This document shows positions 10,175 to 19,988 of a DNA stretch of 64,000 nucleotides, piece by piece (within the stretch, counting starts at the first letter, position 1; every line of letters starts with the position of its first letter). The stretch is from NCBI RefSeq assembly GCF_003634705.1, contig NZ_RBWU01000008.1:310001-374000 (forward strand). The letters are read 5' to 3'. Below the pieces are notes generated by a model. The model did not search any database, was not told the origin of the DNA, and saw only the letters and a program-made list of their open reading frames with translations. The position numbers and the translations under genes were made by a program. The DNA is from Actinomadura pelletieri DSM 43383. GTDB taxonomy: Bacteria > Actinomycetota > Actinomycetes > Streptosporangiales > Streptosporangiaceae.

Positions 10175-10396
10175 GTGCGCGAAGGCAGATTCGGATGCCT
10201 TTGCGTCCATCCGGAGCACCACCACACCAACCAGGCAATGCTCAGCGAAACAGGCCGCAAACTCGTCGTCCAAACCGTCCGGAACAAGCTCGCCGTCACC
10301 GTCACCCACCGTACCCTGGCACGCCCAGTAACCTACGACGAACACCTCTACCTCAGCGACACACCAGGCTCACCCGCACCACCGGACCTCCGCTGA
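10175..10396 (+). pseudogene. Possible cas1 C-terminal relic
   Basis: The 73-codon frame from GTG 10175 contains LSETGRKLVVQTVRNKLAV then TVTHRTLARPVTYDEHLYL. This follows the pattern of the Cas1 C-terminus, where L-x-E-x-G-R-(K/R) is followed by a helix, then T-V-x-H-x-(L/F)-x-R-x-V-(S/T)-Y and a helix starting with E and L. The preceding HPEHHHTNQAM could correspond to the short segment before it. The catalytic Glu/His/Asp region is absent, and no cas2 or cas4 follows. It lies 0.74 kb before the first CRISPR array, in the place an adaptation gene could have occupied. The assignment is by eye and uncertain. Confidence 0.3.
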
Positions 10397-11131
10397 AAAC
10401 CACCCCCACAACCCACTGGCTCCACTACCTATGACCAGCGGCTTACCCTGGGGATCCTCATCGCCCTTCCGAGGGTCCCAACTTGGGTGGTCTAAAGCCG
10501 CCGTGTGGTCAGCACCCGATCCTGGCCCTACGAGGGGTCGCGACGTGACGCCGTGCCGAATGATCGCGGGGACGGTATGGTCCTCGTCCCTACCAGAGGG
10601 AGGCGAGGCAGCGAACTGCGGATCCTGCAGGGTTGAGTTTCCTCTGATCACTCTGGAGCCTGGATTGACCCGGGATTCCAAGAACTAAGAAGGCTTCAGG
10701 CTGTCAGAAACTCGATCCGATCCAGCTTCCAACAGTTGGGCCCCGTACGCATGGTGTTCTGCATACGAGCCCGGATCGTGGTCACGAAAGTGCGCTTGGC
10801 CGGCTGGCCTACACCGGTACGCGGTAGACGTCGCCGGTCGAGGTCGTGGTCGGCCTGTGCAAGCGGTTGTGATCATCCCGCCGTACTGGACCCCAAGGTG
10901 ACGGTGCGTGGCGGTGCATCGCCGACGGTGCGCATACGGGTGATCGTCACCTGGCCGTTCGGCGCGTTGGTGATTGGCCCGCGCCCATGCTGTGTGTACC
11001 CCCTACGGAAAACCACGCGCACGGCTGCACCCACAACCCCACCACCCACCGCTGCCAACTAACAATCCCGTCCCACTTCCCAATCCCCTGACCCGCAGAT
11101 CGTGGCGCCTGGCATGCTTCGGCTTCGGAAC
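10397..11131. other. Non-coding region and candidate leader of CRISPR array 1
   Basis: No reading frame here is convincing on either strand. The degenerate repeat of array 1 lies at its right end, so the leader should be on this left side, within the few hundred bases before 11132. I see no conserved leader motif shared with the sequence before array 2. Confidence 0.4.
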
Positions 11132-11612
11132 GTGTCACCGACCCTGAGGGGTCGGTCCTCATTGCGGGGGGTGGACGCCGGGGGACCGGGCGACCGTCGT
11201 TACGGGGTGTCACCGACCCTGAGGGGTCGGTCCTCATTGCGGGAGCTTCACGCCGTGGTCGACCGCGAGGCCCTCCAGGTGTCACCGACCCTGAGGGGTC
11301 GGTCCTCATTGCGGGGCTGCAACCAACACAGCCTCAGCCCGCACGCGCACGCGTGTCACCGACCCTGAGGGGTCGGTCCTCATTGCGGGCCCGCGCTGGC
11401 GGGCAAGGACAACGAGTCGCGGTCCGGTGTCACCGACCCTGACGGGTCGGTCCTCATTGCGGGGACGTGATTCCGCTCGGCGAGGTCGAGAAGTACAAGT
11501 GTCACCGACCCTGACGGGTCGGTCCTCATTGCGGGGCCGAGGAGCTCGCGGACGAACGCGCGCAGCCCGCCGGGTGTGTCACCGGCCCTGACGGGTCGGT
11601 CCTCATTACAGG
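11132..11612 (+). CRISPR. CRISPR array 1: seven 37-nt repeats, six spacers of 35-40 nt
   Basis: Repeats start at 11132, 11207, 11279, 11353, 11427, 11499 and 11576. Each contains an 8-bp palindromic stem ACCGACCC/GGGTCGGT around a TGAG loop (copies 1-4) or TGAC loop (copies 5-7), then the 3' end CCTCATTGCGGG. The last copy has ACCGG in place of ACCGA and ends TTACAGG, so it is the decayed trailer-end repeat. That orients the array left to right, in the same direction as the cas genes starting 129 nt downstream. The repeat is related to, but distinct from, that of array 2. Confidence 0.95.
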
Positions 11613-11740
11613 GTTCCTTCGGAGGTAGTCGTGGCCGGTTTCGGTTAGTGGCCAAGTTTCTTGTTCGTTTCGCCGCGACTGTCGGTGGTTCCTCGTAGCG
11701 TCTGCGTTACGCGATGCACTCACTGTCACGGGGAGGTCTC

Positions 11741-12880
11741 ATGGAGTCGGCATTCGTTGAGCGGCTGTTGGTGGCGGTCGATGGTGAGCGGGTCGATGCG
11801 GGGGTCTCGATCCACGGTGTCTACCGGCCAGCGGGTGAGGACAAGGTGATGCCGCCGACGTTCCCGGAGGGGCCGTACCTGATGGAGGGGCGCCGGGTTG
11901 GCGGGGAGATGCGGGAGACCGTGGTGCTGGATCAGGTCCCGTCTCAGGCGAACCGGGTTGAGGAGGCGCTGCTGGCGGCGCGGGACAAGGGTCAGATCGA
12001 GCTGCCGCTGTTCGAGTTGCAGGCGCCGACGAGTCGGGGGACGGTCCGTCTTACCTCGCTGGAGTTCCCGCACCGGTACGCCGATGCCTACCTGAGGGAC
12101 AGCCTTGTCGATGGGGTTCGGTTCGACAAGAGCCAGGTCGGGAAGCGGCTGCGGCAGGTGAGTCAGAAGGATGCCCGCCCCCTGTTCGAGCTCGATCCTG
12201 GCTCTTTGATTTACGGGGCGTGGGATTCGCACCGGAAAGGGCGCTGGCCTAAGTTCGCCCGGTTCTACATTTCTTCGATGTTCGGTCTGGACCCGAGGAA
12301 GGGTGAGCGGCGCAGTATGCGGCGTGATCCGATGAACATGACCGGTGGGGTCGATGATGCAGGTAAGGCCGAGGGGGATTGGGAGTTCCGAGCAGCTGGG
12401 GAGAAGTCTCGGGGTACTCGGCTGAGTGAAATCGGGCACGGCAGCGCGTTGGCGAGAACGCCGCCGCCTGGTGGTGTGGTCATCAGTGAAGGTCGTCGGG
12501 ATGCATGGATCTCGCTGGGGGGCTTGGAGCGGGTCCGGTTCGGCGACGCTTCGGATGAGTGCGTGCGGCTGGCGCGGGCGACGCTGCTGGCACTGGCGCT
12601 GGTCGGGGATCGGCTGGCGTTCGATCGTCCTTCCGTCTGGCTTCGGTCGGGCTGCGATTTGGTGCGTGTGAGCGAGACGCTGGCGTTCGAGAAAGACGGC
12701 GGCGAGGCCGAGGAGTTCACGCTCTCGGCGGGAGAGGCGATCGAGATCTTTCACGAGCTGCGTGACCGGACGGCGGCCAGCGGACTGGTGATGGAGACCG
12801 GGACGATCGGGCTGACGCCGTTCAAGGGGTTGGCGGATGCGCTCGAGCATGCGGTGACCAAAGCCGTCGCCGAGGGCTGA
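11741..12880 (+). CDS. csb1: Type I-G CRISPR backbone protein Csb1 (Cas7 family)
   Basis: 379 residues from ATG 11741, chosen because GGGAGG lies 4 nt upstream. The protein matches the Csb1/GSU0053 (Cas7u) pattern, for example RLTSLEFPHRYADAYLRDS and a central LIYGAWDSHRKGRWPKFAR segment. Csb1 forms the multi-copy backbone that coats the crRNA spacer in the type I-G Cascade. It begins the four-gene operon csb1-csb2-cas3-csb3-like, with the csb2 GTG only 3 nt after the stop. The promoter should lie in the 128 nt between array 1 and this start. Confidence 0.85.
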   Translation: MESAFVERLLVAVDGERVDAGVSIHGVYRPAGEDKVMPPTFPEGPYLMEGRRVGGEMRETVVLDQVPSQANRVEEALLAARDKGQIELPLFELQAPTSRGTVRLTSLEFPHRYADAYLRDSLVDGVRFDKSQVGKRLRQVSQKDARPLFELDPGSLIYGAWDSHRKGRWPKFARFYISSMFGLDPRKGERRSMRRDPMNMTGGVDDAGKAEGDWEFRAAGEKSRGTRLSEIGHGSALARTPPPGGVVISEGRRDAWISLGGLERVRFGDASDECVRLARATLLALALVGDRLAFDRPSVWLRSGCDLVRVSETLAFEKDGGEAEEFTLSAGEAIEIFHELRDRTAASGLVMETGTIGLTPFKGLADALEHAVTKAVAEG

Positions 12881-12883
12881 CCG

Positions 12884-14302
12884 GTGCCGCTGTCGATTGT
12901 GGTGCGGCTCCGTGATGGTCGCTATGACGCGGGTGGGTCTGAGCAGCACCTTCCTGAATGGCCTCCTCATCCGGCCCGGGTCTTTTGCGCAATGGTCGCC
13001 TCCGTAATGGCGGAGGAAGATTGGGACGCGTTGCGGTGGTTGGAGAACGCTGGTGCACCGCAGGTGTGGGCGGCGCCGGGCTATGCCTCAAAGCGCCGTG
13101 AGGGGTTTGTGGTTACCAACGTCACCGCTGGCAAGGGGACGAGCCAGCATCAGTTGGGTCGGACTGCCCAGGCCAAGATCAGGATGAGTGCTGAGCCCGA
13201 AAGTGACGAGTTCGCTTTCGTCTGGCCGACTTCCTCCCCCGCGTCGACCACACTCAGGGTCTTGAGGAGTTTGGCGCGCCGGGTGCCTTACTTGGGGCGT
13301 TCGACATCTCCGGTGACCTTGCAGGTACTGGACGAGGTGCCACCGATGCGCGCCGAGTGGACGACGTTGGAGCCGGCGCAGCCCAGCGACCCGAACACCA
13401 TTTTGCTTCGGGCGCCTTATGGTGGCTATGTCGATCGCCTCCGTCAGATATACGCGGAAGGCGGACGGTCCTGGGAGGCGAACCTGGACTGCATTAAGCC
13501 TTACAGCTACCCCAAACAGGCTCCGACCGAGCCGCCGGCGGTCTCCCCTTTCGACGAGTTGCTGATATTCGGTTTCGAATCGGGCACGGTCAAACCTGCC
13601 GGCGAGATGTTGTTGGCGGTCACGGAGCGGTTGCGTGCCGCTGTGCTGGATCGGATTGGTACCGACGTGCCGCCGGAGGTCTCGGGTCACGGTGCTGATG
13701 CGAGCACCCATGTTGGCTATCTGGCGTTGCCGAATGTGGGTAACCGGCATGCGGACGGCAGGTTGCTGGGGGTGGCGGTGGCCGTTCCGCGGGAATTGCG
13801 GCGCCAGGCGTACGCGCGTTTGTGGGGAGCGCTGGTCGAACGGCCGTTGCAGCGTCTGACCTTGCGACGCAATCAGGTCCTGAAACTGGATTACCTACCG
13901 TCAACGGCGTTGACGTGGGGGCTGCAAGCTGAGCGGTGGACGGCTGCGGGTCGTGGTGGGAGTCCGTCCTGGGTCACGGCCACGCCGATGATGCTGGACC
14001 GTTTTCCCAAGAGGGCCAGAGGCGACGATGGGGTGATCAAGGAGGTCGGCCGGTCCTTGGTACGGGCGGGGCTACCTGAGCCGGTGGAGTGGGAGTTCTC
14101 ACCGGCGGCGATGATTCCAGGGGCGTTGCATCGACCGCGCCGCGACACGATTCCTTCGCACCGCCCCTGCAAGCCGATCGTTCATGTGCGGGTCACCTTC
14201 GACCGACCGGTCATCGGTCCCGTGCTGGCTGGGGCGATGAGATATGGGGGGTTGGGGTTGTTCGTACCTGCGGAGGAGAAACCGTATGGTCTTCACCGCT
14301 GA
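12884..14302 (+). CDS. csb2: Type I-G CRISPR protein Csb2 (Cas5-Cas6 fusion)
   Basis: 472 residues from a GTG 3 nt after csb1. Its length and N-terminal start (PLSIVVRLRDGRYDAG, then WPPHPARVFCAMVAS) match the Csb2/GSU0054 family. Members combine a Cas5-like part that caps the 5' handle with a Cas6-like endoribonuclease that cuts the repeat hairpin. A C-terminal segment IVHVRVTFDRPVIGPVLAGA and glycine-rich GGLGLFVP fit the RAMP fold. It would have to process the transcripts of both arrays, whose stems differ in sequence. The final 17 nt overlap cas3. Confidence 0.85.
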   Translation: MPLSIVVRLRDGRYDAGGSEQHLPEWPPHPARVFCAMVASVMAEEDWDALRWLENAGAPQVWAAPGYASKRREGFVVTNVTAGKGTSQHQLGRTAQAKIRMSAEPESDEFAFVWPTSSPASTTLRVLRSLARRVPYLGRSTSPVTLQVLDEVPPMRAEWTTLEPAQPSDPNTILLRAPYGGYVDRLRQIYAEGGRSWEANLDCIKPYSYPKQAPTEPPAVSPFDELLIFGFESGTVKPAGEMLLAVTERLRAAVLDRIGTDVPPEVSGHGADASTHVGYLALPNVGNRHADGRLLGVAVAVPRELRRQAYARLWGALVERPLQRLTLRRNQVLKLDYLPSTALTWGLQAERWTAAGRGGSPSWVTATPMMLDRFPKRARGDDGVIKEVGRSLVRAGLPEPVEWEFSPAAMIPGALHRPRRDTIPSHRPCKPIVHVRVTFDRPVIGPVLAGAMRYGGLGLFVPAEEKPYGLHR

Positions 14303-17090
14303 TGGGTTCGCGGAGTTCGTGTACGAGGTGCACGGGCATCGGCCGTTCCCCTGGCAGCGGGCCTTGGTCGAGCGGGTGCTGCGTGAAGGACGCTGGCCCG
14401 ATGCGTTGGACGTGCCTACCGGGTTGGGCAAGACGTCCATCATCGACGTGTTCGCGTTCGTGGCGGCGGCCCGTCCCCAGGTTGCGCGGCGCCGGTTGTT
14501 CTTCGTGGTGGACCGGCGACTCATCGTGGACGAGGCATACGACCATGCTGCCCACCTCGCCCGCGCGCTACGTGAACCGGCGGGTCCGTGGACGAGGCGG
14601 GTAGCCGAGGCGCTGCGTCAGCCCGGCGACTCGATGCCGCTTCAGGTGACACGGATGCGAGGCGGGGTGACGTGGTCCTGGCTGTGGCTCGAGCGTCCTG
14701 ATCGTTTCGCCGTCGTCGTTGGGACCATCGACCAGGTCGGAAGCCGCCTGCTGTTCCGCGGTTACGGGGTCGGTGAGCATCTCCGCTCCATCGACGCCGC
14801 CCTGGTCGGGACCAACAGCCTGATCGTTGTTGATGAGGCGCATTTGGCCGCGCCGTTCGAGGCGACTGTCCGGGCATTGCGGGCCCACGAATCCGGCGGG
14901 CCGGTCCCTACGCTGATCACGATGTCGGCCACCACGTCCGGTGCCGACGACGGCCGTGTTCACCGGATCAGCGGGGATGACGAGGCCCACGAGGTAGCGG
15001 GTCGGCGGCTTCGAGCCGACCGTCGTCTCCATCTGCTACAGCCGCGCGTGACCAAGAACAACGCCTCTTCGGCCATTCCCGGTCTGTTGGTGGCATGGGC
15101 CACCGCCCTCGCCGGTTCCGAAGGCTCGGGCGCGGTGGTCGGCGTCATTTGCAACACCGTTGCCCGGGCACGGGCGGCTTTCGAGCAGATCCCCGACTCC
15201 CGCTTCGATCGGGTGTTGCTCACCGGCCGAACCCGCCCGCTGGACGCCGCCTATCTGCTTGACCGGTACTACGACCGCATACGGGCCGGTCGCGCCCGGG
15301 GAGATGGGCGGCCCCTCATCGTGGTGGCCACCCAGACGATCGAGGTCGGCGCGAATATCGACCTTGACGTGCTGGTGACCGAATCGGCTGACCTGGCCGC
15401 GATCGTCCAGCGTTTGGGGCGCCTCAACCGGCTCGGTGACCGCGACCGTAGCCACGCTGTGGTCGTCCACGACTCCAGCACCGGGACCGAGGACCCGGTC
15501 TATGGGGCGGCTCGGCAGGCAACCTGGTCCTGGCTCTGTGAACAGACCGAACCCATCTCGCGGAATAAGCCCGGAGAACTCGGCGATGGCCTTCCCGTCC
15601 ATCCGCTGGCGCTGCGGGCCCTCACCGGTGCCCTTTCCGAGCAACGCAAGGTCACCATGCGCGCAGAGTCGAGTTACATCCCGGCACTGACCGAAGACGT
15701 GTTGGACGCCTGGACGAGGACCTCGCCGGCCCCACACCCGGACCCGCCGGTCGCTCCATATCTGCACGGCCTACGGCGAGGGCAGCCCGACGTGTCGATC
15801 GTGTGGCGCTCCGGTTTGCCCGACGATCCCTCCCGATGGGGCGAGGTGTTGCAGGCCGTCCCGCCTACAACCGAGGAGGCCGTCGACGTGCCGCTCGCCG
15901 CCATCCGTCGGTGGCTGGGCGGACAGGGGGACACGGCTGTCTCGGCGTTGGAGGGCCAATTCGACGATCTCCCACTCCCCACGGAAGAGGGCCTGATCGG
16001 CGTTCGTTACCACGGTCACGACCGCACGGTCGTTCCGGTCACGGTCCTTGACATCAACCCCGGCGACACCATCGTCGTGTCCGGTGATCGGGGCGGCTGC
16101 GACCGCTATGGTTGGCACCCCGCATCGAAAGAGCCCGTAACCGATCTCGCCGATCTCGCCGAACGACGCGGACACCCCCTCCTGCGCATTCGTCCCGAAC
16201 TCTTGGACACCTTGCGCGATTACCACCCCGATCTTTTCGCCGCCTTCGCAGACCTGATCACCTTGATCAGCGACGCCCAAGACCCCCCGCCACCGGCATC
16301 GATTCGTCGTGCACTCCCTTGCCCTGACAACGATGCCCTGCCGTTCCTTCGGAACCTGCAGACGCTGAGTGCAGGCTGCACACTGGTACCCCTCGCCGAG
16401 CTGGGGGAACGCCTCCCTGTTCTGCTTGCGGGACGAGGCGGCGGACTTCGCGGCGACGAAGGATCACTGGAATCCTCTACCGCCGCACAACAGATCGGCC
16501 TGGTCGAACATCAGGAGGCCGTAGCGGCACGCGCCGAGGAATTCGCCCGCAACCTCGGCCTTCCGGAGCCCCTCCGCGTCGTGGTCACCGCCGCCGCACG
16601 TCACCACGACGAAGGCAAGCGCGATGAGCGGTTTCAGGCCATGCTGCACCAGCGTCCGCTACGCGCCTTCTTGCCGGGCGGTCCGCTGCTGGCCAAGTCC
16701 GGGATGGACCCGGCCGACCGTGCCGCATTCCGACGGGCCCGTATCCTGGCCGAATACCCCGCAGGACTCCGCCACGAAGCCCTATCGGCCAGAATCGTCC
16801 AAGCCATTGGACCCGCCGACGACCTGCTGATCCACCTGGTCGCCGCCCACCACGGCCGTGGCCGACCCCTGCTGCCACCCACGCACGATCCAGCGCCCGG
16901 CACCGTTCGCATTGATCACAACGGCACCAAGGCCGAACTGGACGCAGACCACACCATCGACTGGGACGGCCCTCGCCGCTTCCACGAACTCAACCGCACC
17001 TACGGCCGCTGGCACCTGGCGCTCCTGGAAACCATCGTTCGACTGGCCGATATCTGGTGCTCCGAACACCCCGACGAGAACACCCCATGA
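14286..17090 (+). CDS. cas3: Type I-G Cas3 helicase-nuclease with C-terminal HD domain
   Basis: 934 residues from ATG 14286, with an AGGAG box about 9 nt upstream inside csb2. The SF2 helicase comes first: Walker A DVPTGLGKTS (about residue 43), VVDEAHLA (DEAH box about 183-186), SATTSG and the motif VI region QRLGRLNRLG. The HD nuclease lies at the C-terminus: RHHDEGKRDERFQ (His773-His774-Asp775), HEALSARI and AAHHGRGRPL. Helicase-then-HD order is characteristic of type I-G/I-U Cas3 and opposite to most type I systems. Both catalytic sites look intact, so the protein should unwind and degrade target DNA recruited by Cascade. Confidence 0.92.
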   Translation: MVFTADGFAEFVYEVHGHRPFPWQRALVERVLREGRWPDALDVPTGLGKTSIIDVFAFVAAARPQVARRRLFFVVDRRLIVDEAYDHAAHLARALREPAGPWTRRVAEALRQPGDSMPLQVTRMRGGVTWSWLWLERPDRFAVVVGTIDQVGSRLLFRGYGVGEHLRSIDAALVGTNSLIVVDEAHLAAPFEATVRALRAHESGGPVPTLITMSATTSGADDGRVHRISGDDEAHEVAGRRLRADRRLHLLQPRVTKNNASSAIPGLLVAWATALAGSEGSGAVVGVICNTVARARAAFEQIPDSRFDRVLLTGRTRPLDAAYLLDRYYDRIRAGRARGDGRPLIVVATQTIEVGANIDLDVLVTESADLAAIVQRLGRLNRLGDRDRSHAVVVHDSSTGTEDPVYGAARQATWSWLCEQTEPISRNKPGELGDGLPVHPLALRALTGALSEQRKVTMRAESSYIPALTEDVLDAWTRTSPAPHPDPPVAPYLHGLRRGQPDVSIVWRSGLPDDPSRWGEVLQAVPPTTEEAVDVPLAAIRRWLGGQGDTAVSALEGQFDDLPLPTEEGLIGVRYHGHDRTVVPVTVLDINPGDTIVVSGDRGGCDRYGWHPASKEPVTDLADLAERRGHPLLRIRPELLDTLRDYHPDLFAAFADLITLISDAQDPPPPASIRRALPCPDNDALPFLRNLQTLSAGCTLVPLAELGERLPVLLAGRGGGLRGDEGSLESSTAAQQIGLVEHQEAVAARAEEFARNLGLPEPLRVVVTAAARHHDEGKRDERFQAMLHQRPLRAFLPGGPLLAKSGMDPADRAAFRRARILAEYPAGLRHEALSARIVQAIGPADDLLIHLVAAHHGRGRPLLPPTHDPAPGTVRIDHNGTKAELDADHTIDWDGPRRFHELNRTYGRWHLALLETIVRLADIWCSEHPDENTP

Positions 17091-18034
17091 CCGCGATCGA
17101 ACTACCCGCTCTCGACGGCCGCGACCCCCTGGGCTTTCTCGCCGCCCTCGGACTCCACCGGCTCCTGACGAACGAAACAGGCACCCAAGTATCACTGAGC
17201 TTCTCCGACCGGACCGCAAAAGCCATAATCCACAGCGACATCGAATCCATCGACGCCATTACCGCGACACTGAACAACATCGTCGCCCGCGCAGGCGACG
17301 CCACCGCCATCGTCGATGTTGACGACCGGTTCCCCTTGGCCAAACCGAAAAAGTCCGCGGCCGCCAGCCAAGGAGCCGGACAGAAAGATCCCATGCGGGT
17401 GCGACGGGACGAATACCACGCGCTGGCCGACCGCATCACCGAGCTGGGTGACGAGGCCAAAGGCTGGTTCCATTGCCTCATCACCGACTTGGCAACCGAC
17501 GCCCAACAACGCGTCGCGCTCACTCCCTACTGTGCCCCTGTCGGGCAACAAAGCCTGCGCTCCTTCTTTGCAACCCCCCTCCAAGAGGTCCGCAAAGACC
17601 CCTCTTACCTGCGCGAAGCCCTCACCGCGTGGAGGCGCGTCGACAAGTTCACCGGCGAGTACCTCGATCACCGCGTCATCCGAAGCGCCGCCGACCACCC
17701 CAACGGAGTATCGACAGAGGCCGGCGTCCCCGGCGCCACCTGGCTCGCTACCCAGGCGCTCCGCCTTCTCCGCATCTCTGGCGACGGCGAGCACGTCACC
17801 GCCACCCTCTGGCACCGGCACCAACGCCGCAATCTGATGCTTTGGCCCCTGTGGACCGAACCACTCGACCTACAAGCAGTAGCGACCCTGCTCGACCACC
17901 CTGCCATCAACCCCGAACTCGATCGAACGACCCTCCACAACATGAACGTCTTCACAGTCGCCGCTGCAGAACGAACACAGCTCAGAGGCCCCAAAAGCGC
18001 CCGCGTGCTCGTACCGGCCAAAACGAACTGGTGA
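17087..18034 (+). CDS. Csb3-like / Cas3-extension-type protein of type I-G locus (candidate Cas8-like subunit)
   Basis: 315 residues; the ATG overlaps the cas3 stop as ATGA, so it is translationally coupled. The N-terminus IELPALDGRDPLGFLAALGL resembles the opening of Csb3/Csx17-type large-subunit proteins, which also begin with a short strand and then P-x-G/x-x-F-L-A-A-L-G. It matches in size the small fourth protein of actinobacterial I-G operons, annotated as Csb3 or as a Cas3-extension family. No separate Csx17 is present, so it is the best candidate for the PAM-recognition subunit. No catalytic motif is visible. The family call is moderate. Confidence 0.6.
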   Translation: MTAIELPALDGRDPLGFLAALGLHRLLTNETGTQVSLSFSDRTAKAIIHSDIESIDAITATLNNIVARAGDATAIVDVDDRFPLAKPKKSAAASQGAGQKDPMRVRRDEYHALADRITELGDEAKGWFHCLITDLATDAQQRVALTPYCAPVGQQSLRSFFATPLQEVRKDPSYLREALTAWRRVDKFTGEYLDHRVIRSAADHPNGVSTEAGVPGATWLATQALRLLRISGDGEHVTATLWHRHQRRNLMLWPLWTEPLDLQAVATLLDHPAINPELDRTTLHNMNVFTVAAAERTQLRGPKSARVLVPAKTNW

Positions 18035-18075
18035 GCCCAGCAAGCCTTCGAGTGGCAGCGGCGAGGTTCAAATCC

Positions 18076-18124
18076 CACTTCGGAACCACCAGTGCCCACA
18101 CAAACCCCGGGAGGTTCCGAAGTG
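18076..18124 (+). terminator. 12-bp inverted repeat after the cas operon, before array 2
   Basis: CACTTCGGAACC (18076-18087) is perfectly complementary to GGTTCCGAAGTG (18113-18124) across a 25-nt loop. It lies 42 nt after the csb3-like stop and 83 nt before the first repeat of array 2. It could end the cas transcript or be part of the array 2 leader. There is no U-tract, as is usual in high-GC actinomycetes. Confidence 0.5.
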
Positions 18125-18206
18125 CATAGCGTTTGTCAGGGGCACAATTCGGACAGTCACTTCGATGAAGACGGTCACTTACGGTCATCATCGCAGGTCA
18201 GTTGCC

Positions 18207-19488
18207 CAACACCGGCCCTCGTCAGCCGGTCCTCATTGCGGGATAGAGTGCGCCGGTATCGCGGCCGGGTACGACCACGCAACACCGGCCCTCGTCAGCC
18301 GGTCCTCATTGCGGGTCGGCCCGCTGCCTGCGCCGACGCAGGTGGAGGAGACAACACCGGCCCTCGTCAGCCGGTCCTCATTGCGGGCGAACATCCGGCC
18401 TGACAGCAGAACCTCGATGGCATCAACACCGGCCCTCGTCAGCCGGTCCTCATTGCGGGGAGTGGGTGGCCCGGATCGTGGCGCAGGCGCATGAAGCCAA
18501 CACCGGCTCTCGTCAGCCGGTCCTCATTGCGGGCAGGTGCTCATGGCGTGGGGAGTCGCCGCCGCCAACGCCAACACCGGCTCTCGTCAGCCGGTCCTCA
18601 TTGCGGGTTCGTCCTCCGCCCGGTCCGCTGGTACGCGATGGCGACCCAACACCGGCTCTCGTCAGCCGGTCCTCATTGGGGGGCTTTCACCCACGACGGC
18701 ACCGGCCTGCTCGTCGGCCCCAACACCGGCTCTCGTCAGCCGGTCCTCATTGCGGGGTGGTCAACACCGTCTTCAACAGCGGCATCGTGCGGCTCCAACA
18801 CCGGCCCTCGTCAGCCGGTCCTCATTGCGGTTCTGCGCGGCTGAGCCAGTGTGCGACCAGTCCGTCCAACACCGGTCCTCGTCAGCAGGTCTCATTGCGG
18901 GCTGACCAGGATGACCGAGCACGCGCCCCGTGCCCTGCCCACACCGGCCCTCGTCAGCCGGTCCTCATTGCGGGTCTTGCGCGTAGGAAAGAGGTGTGGC
19001 CTCGCTGTCCCAACACCGGCCCTCGTCAGCCGGTCCTCATTGCGGGCTGGGAACTACCAGGCGGAAAGGTCGACCCCGGCGACCAACACCGGCTCTCGTC
19101 AGCCGGTCCTCATTGCGGGTACACGGGGTACGCGCAGCGGCGGGCTGATCACCGGTGGTGCCAACACCGGCTCTCGTCAGCCGGTCCTCATTGCGGGCCC
19201 AGCGCCCGGCCCGCCTGCATCGACAGGTCCCCCCCAACACCGGCTCTCGTCAGCCGGTCCTCATTGCGGGGCGGCCGGGGGATGCGGATGCTCACGCGGC
19301 CATCACCCCAACACCGGCTCTCGTCAGCCGGTCCTCATTGCGGGTTCACCGGGCTGACCGGGATCACCTCCGCGCTCGCCCAACACCGGCCCTCGTCAGC
19401 CGGTCCTCATTGCGGGCTCTCTTCCTCCTCCCATGGAGAGTGCTGTGACATCCAACACCGACCTTTGTCGGCCGGTCCTTATTGCGAG
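18207..19488 (+). CRISPR. CRISPR array 2: eighteen 36-nt repeats, seventeen spacers
   Basis: Repeats start at 18207, 18280, 18352, 18424, 18498, 18572, 18647, 18721, 18796, 18867, 18939, 19011, 19084, 19162, 19235, 19309, 19381 and 19453. They contain ACCGGC/GCCGGT arms and the 3' end CCTCATTGCGGG shared with array 1. Position 11 is C in copies 1-4, 9, 11, 12 and 17, and T in copies 5-8 and 13-16. Copy 7 ends TTGGGG, copy 10 has lost a base, and copy 18 is degenerate (ACCGACCTTTG, TTATTGCGAG). Spacers are mostly 35-39 nt, one is 42. The decayed right end places the leader on the left, between the csb3-like gene and 18207. Confidence 0.95.
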
Positions 19489-19988
19489 TCCTGATTTCTC
19501 CATCTCCGTTGCGGGGAGGACTCCGTGCCAAAACCGGCCCTCGTTGTCCGAATTGTGGCTGGCAGCCATCTTCATGCAAAGCGACGAGCGACCTTTGCTG
19601 AGGTCCGGGTGTAGGGTGAGCCGTTCTTTGTGAAACCGTTCGTATCCTGTAGCAGCCGGTGCTTATTGCGGGGGCGTCACCGTGCCTATCGTGGCAGGTG
19701 AAGTTAGCCTGCCGATCGTAGCGTTGCGTACTCACACACGCTATTGGCGTTCATGGGCCGGCTGGCAAGTTGAAATGGCATTTAGCTTTAGCGGACCTTG
19801 TTGTCTCTTGTGTAGGCGATAGCAGTCCGAAATTGTAGAGATTGTCCTCTATGGTCTGAATAGTGTTGTAGGAAGATTTACCTTTGCCGCGCCGCGAGGT
19901 GTAGGCAGAGAGCCAGACTAGGTCTACGATCGCTCATCGTTGTGCTCGAAGCGCAACATGCGAATGATCAAGTTTGCGAAGGTGAAAC
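19489..19988 (+). repeat. Decayed CRISPR repeats beyond array 2, then non-coding sequence
   Basis: A repeat-like segment CAAAACCGGCCCTCGTTGTC starts at 19529, close to one unit (about 76 nt) after the last clear repeat, and CAGCCGGTGCTTATTGCGGG occurs at 19653-19672. These look like mutated former repeats, so the array was once longer. From about 19680 to 19988 I see no gene; the composition becomes less GC-rich, and an AAGGTG box at the end precedes the next start. Confidence 0.55.

What the first reader, a model, noticed from the sequence alone, without database searches (positions are those of the whole stretch)
10175..19680. Effector-only type I-G CRISPR locus between two arrays with different repeats
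The operon has csb1, csb2, cas3 and a csb3-like gene, but no intact cas1, cas2 or cas4, while arrays of 7 and 18 repeats lie on both sides. Type I-G loci usually carry a cas4-cas1 fusion and cas2. Either adaptation comes from elsewhere or the arrays are frozen. Decay at the right end of both arrays and mutated repeats inside array 2 favour reduced turnover.
Basis: partly seen in the sequence, partly recalled or inferred. Interest (0 to 1): 0.65.

Follow-up and report, generated by a model that had tools for sequence, protein, structure and literature searches.

The report
CRISPR effector with borrowed spacer integrase
A bacterial immune system that has lost its own memory-writing genes, as most of its relatives have, carries memory arrays whose layout matches the writing machinery of a different CRISPR type, which suggests that its memories were written by another system.

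Summary
In detail: a complete type I-G effector operon (cas7g, csb2, cas3g, cas8g) lies between arrays of 7 and 18 repeats, without cas4-cas1 or cas2. The only cas1 trace (10224-10354) belongs to a dead I-B remnant. The genome has three other Cas1 sets (I-B, I-E, RT-Cas1), none with matching repeats. Lack of Cas1 is ordinary here: a cas4-cas1 fusion lies beside 4 of 41 I-G loci examined, and 10 of 43 I-G genomes have no Cas1 match. Effector-only I-U/I-G loci were published in 2014. Right-end decay is trailer decay and says nothing about turnover. New: arrays beside an own cas4-cas1 have 36-nt repeats and the leader word GNTCA 22 nt away (4 of 5); arrays without cas1 mostly have 37-nt repeats and that word exactly 6 nt away (44 of 57, or 44 of 66 with chains first left out). 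Type I-C arrays of the family share this layout (12 of 14). So the cas1-less arrays were probably written by a non-cognate, I-C-type integrase. Array 2 keeps the word one base closer, and its three newest units shifted by exactly one base; array 1 lacks it. No I-C Cas1 is found in this genome, so growth is probably halted or rare.

The parts
10224..10354 (+). relic of the 3' end of a type I-B cas1 gene
   Evidence: 92% over 131 nt to L008 1101-1231, the I-B cas1 on C1
10350..10482 (+). relic of a type I-B leader with a decayed I-B repeat
   Evidence: 81% over 135 nt to both I-B leaders of the genome; further decayed I-B-like repeats near 10524 and 10578 seen by eye
11132..11612 (+). CRISPR array 1: 7 repeats of 37 nt, 6 spacers; leader without the GNTCA anchor
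11714..12880 (+). csb1 / cas7g
   Evidence: PF09617 9e-39, TIGR02570 1e-15
12884..14302 (+). csb2 (Cas5-Cas6, crRNA processing)
   Evidence: TIGR02165 4.8e-81, PF09609 3.7e-17
14244..17090 (+). cas3g helicase-nuclease
   Evidence: TIGR02621 5e-231, with helicase and C-terminal HD matches
   Evidence: NF049934 1.7e-88, PADLOC Cas8g 6e-31
18196..18200 (+). leader anchor GGTCA of array 2, 5 nt before the old 37-nt repeat, 6 nt before the 36-nt unit of the newest duplications
   Evidence: sequence; comparison of leaders
18206..19488 (+). CRISPR array 2: 18 repeats, 17 spacers; repeats 2-4 with 36-nt register, 5-18 with 37-nt register
19525..19680 (+). possible decayed repeat remnants beyond the trailer end
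   Evidence: (19653-19679)

Best explanation
It is a complete type I-G interference module (Csb2 cuts the array transcript, Cas7g/Csb2/Cas8g carry the crRNA, Cas3g destroys the target) in a lineage that has repeatedly lost the cognate Cas4-Cas1/Cas2. Its arrays were extended not by the cognate I-G integrase but by a non-cognate Cas1-Cas2(-Cas4), most likely of type I-C, that recognises a GNTC(A/G) anchor and cuts 6 nt further on. Array 1 has no such anchor and is probably closed. Array 2 kept it and took at least three spacers after the leader lost one base. With no I-C Cas1 found in this genome now, growth is probably halted or very rare, while the stored spacers still fit phages and integrated elements of the genus. 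Shown by sequence: gene content, repeat lengths, anchor positions, register shift, protospacer candidates. Inferred: the identity of the integrase, present inactivity, expression and interference.
For: Repeat length: position -37 is variable (0.55-0.71) in all 5 arrays beside an own cas4-cas1, and conserved (at least 0.75) in 48 of 54 arrays without it. Anchor GNTC(A/G): exactly 22 nt before the repeat in 4 of 5 own-cas4-cas1 arrays (the fifth has GGCCA there) and in 3 of 3 RT-Cas1 arrays, this genome's included; none in the last 45 nt of 7 I-B leaders from 6 genomes; exactly 6 nt before the repeat in 44 of 57 arrays without cas1 (28 of 31 loci have at least one) and in 12 of 14 I-C arrays; at any of 43 other offsets at most 2 of 57. 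Leader profile similarity of I-C and cas1-less I-G peaks at equal phase (98.8; next 17.5 within 10 nt). On the Cas3g tree the own-cas4-cas1 label needs at least 4 changes. Array 2: the base before CAACACC is C in 14 of 14 old repeats, G/A/T in repeats 2-4, as the 6-nt rule predicts from a leader gap one base shorter than in G286. Protospacer candidates A2.3 and A2.8 (TTC), A1.6 (GTC), A2.6 (TAC); A1.6 and A2.8 lie in one prophage. I-C Cas1 is more frequent in genomes with I-G: 8 of 43 against 20 of 295, p 0.016.
Against: No I-C Cas1 was found in G000, nor in most cas1-less I-G genomes. Repeat homogeneity does not follow I-C: G312 1.00 and G128 0.96 but G298 0.70, G229 0.79; it is high in I-B genomes G000, G320, G267, G037, G291. 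The anchor word also occurs at 22 nt in cognate I-G and RT leaders, so it may be a general signal with a movable distance. For 5 of the 44 anchored arrays (G128 twice, G012, G005, array 2 of the window) the 36-nt start was used because -37 is variable there; at a strict 37-nt start 39 of 57 remain. Nine further chains of 8 or more repeats (L097, L099, L100, L102, L104: distant or split variants, fragmentary calls) were left out of the first count and all lack the anchor: 44 of 66 with them. Including the doubtful I-C locus L206, I-C is 12 of 15. G128 has 36-nt repeats without cas1. The PAM does not discriminate: TTC suits both types, and no I-C protospacer was found. Only 5 own-cas4-cas1 arrays were compared.
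Confidence: 0.58

Rival explanations
1. Plain loss: the cognate cas4-cas1-cas2 were lost, and the arrays are leftovers that only decay. No other integrase ever served them.
For: No cognate integrase found in the genome. Relatives without any Cas1 match have drifted repeats (0.73-0.90, 5 genomes). Array 1 has no anchor.
Against: Repeats in cas1-less loci are mostly 37 nt where cognate arrays are 36 nt, with another anchor distance; leftovers of a cognate system would keep its layout. Array 2 gained three units after a leader change. G312 without own cas1 has 23 identical repeats.
Confidence: 0.2
2. The I-B Cas4-Cas1-Cas2 of this genome serves the I-G arrays in trans.
For: Genomes with I-B Cas1 mostly have homogeneous I-G arrays (G000, G320, G267, G037, G291). 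An I-B cassette once sat beside array 1, and I-B leaders adjoin I-G arrays in G000 and G320. The I-B arrays themselves are intact, 7 of 7 and 4 of 4 repeats identical.
Against: I-B repeats are 30 nt and 7 of 7 I-B leaders lack the anchor. G229 has I-B but drifted I-G arrays. The I-B PAM could not be read (one weak hit).
Confidence: 0.12
3. An own integrase of another clade, with 37-nt duplication and the 6-nt anchor, once belonged to these I-G operons and was lost many times; no trans action is involved.
For: Would explain the layout without I-C in most genomes.
Against: No such operon was seen among 41 loci (searched with three Cas1 proteins only); the layout equals that of living I-C systems in phase and repeat length.
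Confidence: 0.1

Closest known systems
Type I-G (formerly I-U) CRISPR-Cas; Thioalkalivibrio effector (PMC9638904, passages read)
   Same: cas7g, csb2, cas3g, cas8g; repeat hairpin; a TTN-type flank in 2 of 4 protospacer candidates
   Different: no Cas4-Cas1 fusion, no Cas2; Cas8g of 325 aa, where the paper says the one it studied is the largest of three variants; two flanking arrays
I-U_Sa and I-U_csx17 of Salinispora, lacking cas1 (PMC4223832, passages read)
   Same: effector-only I-U/I-G loci in an actinomycete; the paper already gives 37 nt as the average repeat of both I-C and I-U; prophage-matching spacers in I-U_Sa arrays
   Different: that paper took them as potentially unable to add spacers; no leader comparison appears in the passages read
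Trans adaptation of VI-B by II-C Cas1 in Flavobacterium columnare (PMC8092290, outline and section 11 read)
   Same: effector locus without cas1/cas2 served by another type; equal repeat length used as argument
   Different: there tested with a cas1 deletion mutant (section titles); here inferred from leaders, and the presumed donor is not found in this genome
Type VII loci (PMC12669027, passages read)
   Same: no adaptation module, repeats with multiple substitutions, as in the drifting arrays of relatives here
   Different: other effector; the window's own arrays are fairly uniform
Type I-C CRISPR-Cas (cas3-cas5-cas8c-cas7-cas4-cas1-cas2; neighbour names by eye, Cas1 by TIGR03640)
   Same: 37-nt repeats and GNTC(A/G)-N6 leader end, as in the cas1-less I-G arrays of the same family
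   Different: other effector genes and another 3' repeat handle

Membership tests
type I-G effector module | csb2 (Cas5-Cas6) gene | tested here: met
   TIGR02165 273 bits, cut-off 45
type I-G effector module | cas3g, cas7g and cas8g in the same operon | tested here: met
   TIGR02621, TIGR02570, NF049934 over cut-off
complete type I-G locus | Cas4-Cas1 fusion and cas2 | tested here: not met
   absent from locus; none of the three Cas1 frames of the genome reads as a Cas4-Cas1 fusion
type I-G | TTN PAM | tested here: inconclusive
   four protospacer candidates: TTC, TTC, GTC, TAC; one of the TTC has 7 mismatches
trans adaptation by a type I-C module | same repeat length and leader anchor as I-C | tested here: met
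   family-wide: 44 of 57 (44 of 66 with omitted chains) against 12 of 14; in the window: anchor in array 2 yes, array 1 no
trans adaptation by a type I-C module | I-C Cas1 present in the same genome | tested here: not met
   TIGR03640 no match in G000 at 1e-80; its three Cas1 were read and are I-B, RT-linked and I-E
trans adaptation by a type I-C module | loss of spacer uptake when the donor cas1 is deleted | not testable with these tools
   needs bench work

The most novel reading that the evidence does not exclude
Leader capture: I-G loci of this family repeatedly discarded their own integrase and their arrays came to use the leader anchor and 37-nt ruler of type I-C, so that I-C integrases that come and go by gene transfer write their memories. 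Between such visits the arrays drift, yet the repeat hairpin is kept in at least some of them by compensatory changes because the stored crRNAs stay useful.
Probability: 0.4. Interest if true: 0.8.

Novelty: new variant of a known kind. Interest (0 to 1): 0.6.

Why it matters
How effector-only CRISPR loci get spacers is an open question; the one tested case met in this work is II-C serving VI-B. If leader capture is right, the integrase that wrote an array can be read from its leader and repeat length, modules of type I systems are more exchangeable than operon maps suggest, and drifting arrays offer a clock for how long stored immunity lasts without updating.

Tried and rejected
Spacer matches in the phage collection: none for array 2, one chance-level hit (E 0.5) for array 1. 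I-B PAM: 1675 of 3096 nt of I-B spacers were sent (the pasted query was cut short), one 90% hit, no PAM. I-C PAM from 29 G265 spacers: no I-C protospacer. A2.12 matches a Nudix-like motif in many chromosomes (motif name recalled); taken as a conserved gene, not counted for the PAM. Shared spacers as proof of frozen arrays: only a few cross-genome pairs, at other positions. Compensatory stem changes: column shuffles (500) were seldom or never reached in G307, G109, G065, G096 array a, G088 and G062; under the slid-partner control the excess is clear only in G307 (30 against at most 3) and G096 array a (8 against at most 3), slight in G088 and G062, absent in G065, G109, G107 and the second G096 array. 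Plasmid-borne I-G Cas4-Cas1 as controls: R. marinus array unclear, Cereibacter with a 36-nt repeat and GTTCA 19 nt off rather than 22 or 6, Alicyclobacillus is type V. The run pattern of the C/T variant inside array 2 was looked at only by eye. My first reading of the RT anchor distance (about 25 nt) was wrong; the recount gives 22. Rows dropped: G063, G378, G522, G633 from array statistics (no array found or another variant); I-G loci of G021, G331, G337, G338 were not fetched; split-cas3 and distant variants are in the leader count only in part (nine omitted chains, all without anchor) and not in the homogeneity test; 14 of 29 I-C loci scanned had no repeat in the held stretch and one (L206) was dropped because its first repeat was doubtful.
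Full report
What is there. The window is bases 310001-374000 of contig C8 of a 7.53-Mb, 15-contig genome. The genus is Actinomadura by inference: G286, classed 'same genus', has its I-G locus on a contig of 87,242 bases, and the named record of Actinomadura violacea LCR2-06 with the closest I-G locus found has the same length. All frames are open. The arrays lie on the same strand; the conserved 3' handle (TCATTGCGGG) puts both leaders on the left, so the decayed right ends are trailers.

Adaptation genes. Pfam Cas1 finds three places in the genome: C8:287791 (an RT gene, a TAG, cas1 and cas2, with a short decayed array), C1:122341 (cas3-cas4-cas1-cas2 of I-B kind, arrays of 7 and 4 repeats, each set identical) and C8:60491 (I-E by its neighbours and repeat) (gene names other than Cas1 and Cas2 by eye). 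Cas2 matches sit beside the first two. None of the three reads as a Cas4-Cas1 fusion, and no other place in the genome matched the I-G repeat pattern. Upstream of array 1 lies the wreck of an I-B cassette: the end of cas1, no cas2, the leader, and a decayed repeat. That explains the cas1-like sequence within the finding.

How common is it. Cas3g over the curated cut-off occurs in 43 of 341 genomes of the family. Of the 40 loci fetched plus the window, a Cas4-Cas1 like that of G049 lies in 4 of 41 (L080, L085, L095, L096; several stretches end at contig ends). Of 27 loci with the same four genes as the window, 2 have it. Ten of the 43 genomes have no Cas1 match, some of them nearly closed. At least 20 of the 40 fetched loci have arrays on both sides of the operon. 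So the locus is ordinary for its family, and cas1-less I-U/I-G loci were described in Salinispora in 2014 (PMC4223832, passages).

Turnover. Repeats within an array were compared. Mean pairwise identity per genome: own cas4-cas1 0.976-0.986 (3 genomes); a strong Cas1 of another type elsewhere 0.70-1.00, mean 0.916 (10 genomes, the window's 0.952); only weak or I-E-type Cas1 matches, mean 0.848 (11); none, mean 0.837 (5). Other-type against the last two groups: Mann-Whitney p 0.022; at least 0.93 in 7 of 10 against 1 of 16, p 0.0013. These are species, not independent events, and the cut at 0.93 was chosen after seeing the data. Loops diverge more than stems in several drifting arrays. Compensatory changes beyond the slid-partner control are clear in G307 and one G096 array only.

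Two integrase layouts. Aligning arrays at the 3' handle showed that the five arrays beside an own cas4-cas1 have 36-nt repeats: the base at -37 is as variable as spacer. Of 54 arrays without it, 48 have -37 conserved (at least 0.75), so mostly 37 nt. The leaders differ too. In own-cas4-cas1 arrays GNTCA stands exactly 22 nt before the repeat in 4 of 5; the same 22 nt hold in 3 of 3 RT-Cas1 arrays, this genome's included. In arrays without cas1 the word stands exactly 6 nt before the repeat in 44 of 57; 5 of these use a 36-nt start, and nine omitted chains of distant or split variants all lack it, giving 44 of 66. The I-C systems of the family (28 of 338 genomes over cut-off; gene order seen in L119 and L110) have 37-nt repeats and the word at the same 6 nt in 12 of 14 readable leaders. 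Seven I-B leaders have none. On a Cas3g tree (31 rows, short search, one long-branched outgroup) the own-cas4-cas1 label needs at least four changes, so the layout without cas1 is not one clade's accident.

The window's arrays under this view. Array 2 has GGTCA five bases before the 37-nt repeat, one fewer than in its nearest relative G286. A fixed 6-nt step would now cut one base inside the old repeat and duplicate 36 nt. Repeats 5-18 all begin with C (14 of 14); repeats 2-4 have G, A and T there. So at least three spacers were taken up after the leader change, by an enzyme that measures from this anchor. The genome's RT-Cas1 works, by its own leader, at 22 nt and its I-B leaders have no anchor, so neither fits. 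Array 1 has no anchor.

Targets. Against 338 family genomes (only the top candidates of each were scored) spacers A1.6 (4 mismatches of 40) and A2.8 (7 of 38) fall in tail and tape-measure genes (named by size and position) of one prophage in G288, A2.6 (3 of 38) in an element of G274, A2.3 (3 of 35) near an integrase-like gene in G272; flanks GTC, TTC, TAC, TTC. The listed matches to the own genome all lie in the two arrays. Spacers of G286, which has no Cas1 match, also match genus elements with TTC, those of G252 with TCC and GGC, those of G265 with TTC and TTT. The known I-G PAM is TTN (PMC9638904, passages), with TTC and TAC also listed for I-G and TTC called canonical for I-C (PMC8482600, passages).

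Judgement. The loss of adaptation genes is ordinary and already in print for I-U/I-G, and equal average repeat lengths of I-C and I-U were in print too. What seems new is that arrays of cas1-less I-G loci carry the leader geometry and repeat length of I-C rather than of cognate I-G. The listings of searches and the passages read showed no paper on this; they cover only open-licence papers. The weak point is the donor: this genome and most like it lack I-C now, and homogeneity follows I-B at least as well. I therefore hold 'non-cognate integrase of I-C type' at 0.58 and the stronger 'leader capture with supply in trans' at 0.4.

Noticed in passing
L001 / G000:C8:286291-290139: RT gene and cas1 lie in one frame separated by a single TAG, followed by cas2 and a short array whose repeats decay quickly; a Cas6-like frame (judged by eye) runs the other way. 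It sits 36 kb upstream of cas3g and its leader has the 22-nt anchor of cognate I-G arrays.
   Followed up: partly
L071 14204-14334 (G320): An I-B type leader and repeats adjoin the second I-G array, as the dead I-B relic adjoins array 1 in the window.
   Followed up: partly
L076/L137 (G307), L094/L140 (G096): Arrays of 48-54 repeats in genomes without Cas1 or with only a weak, I-E-type match; in G307 repeats fall into interleaved variant types with matched stem changes, in G096 the loops are hypervariable.
   Followed up: partly
L178 (G243), L179 (G272), L180 (G266): The oldest (or nearly oldest) spacers of arrays in G252 and G286, genomes without a Cas1 match, hit the same short stretch of one sequence in opposite orientation.
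   Followed up: no
L224 (G261:C2:780606): The oldest array 1 spacer of G265 matches (3 of 37) a sequence close to the I-G locus of G261, with a TTC flank.
   Followed up: no
window 18206-19416: The C/T repeat variant in array 2 comes in blocks of about four (C4, T4, C-like 4, T4, C), which polarised growth alone would need several back-mutations to make.
   Followed up: no
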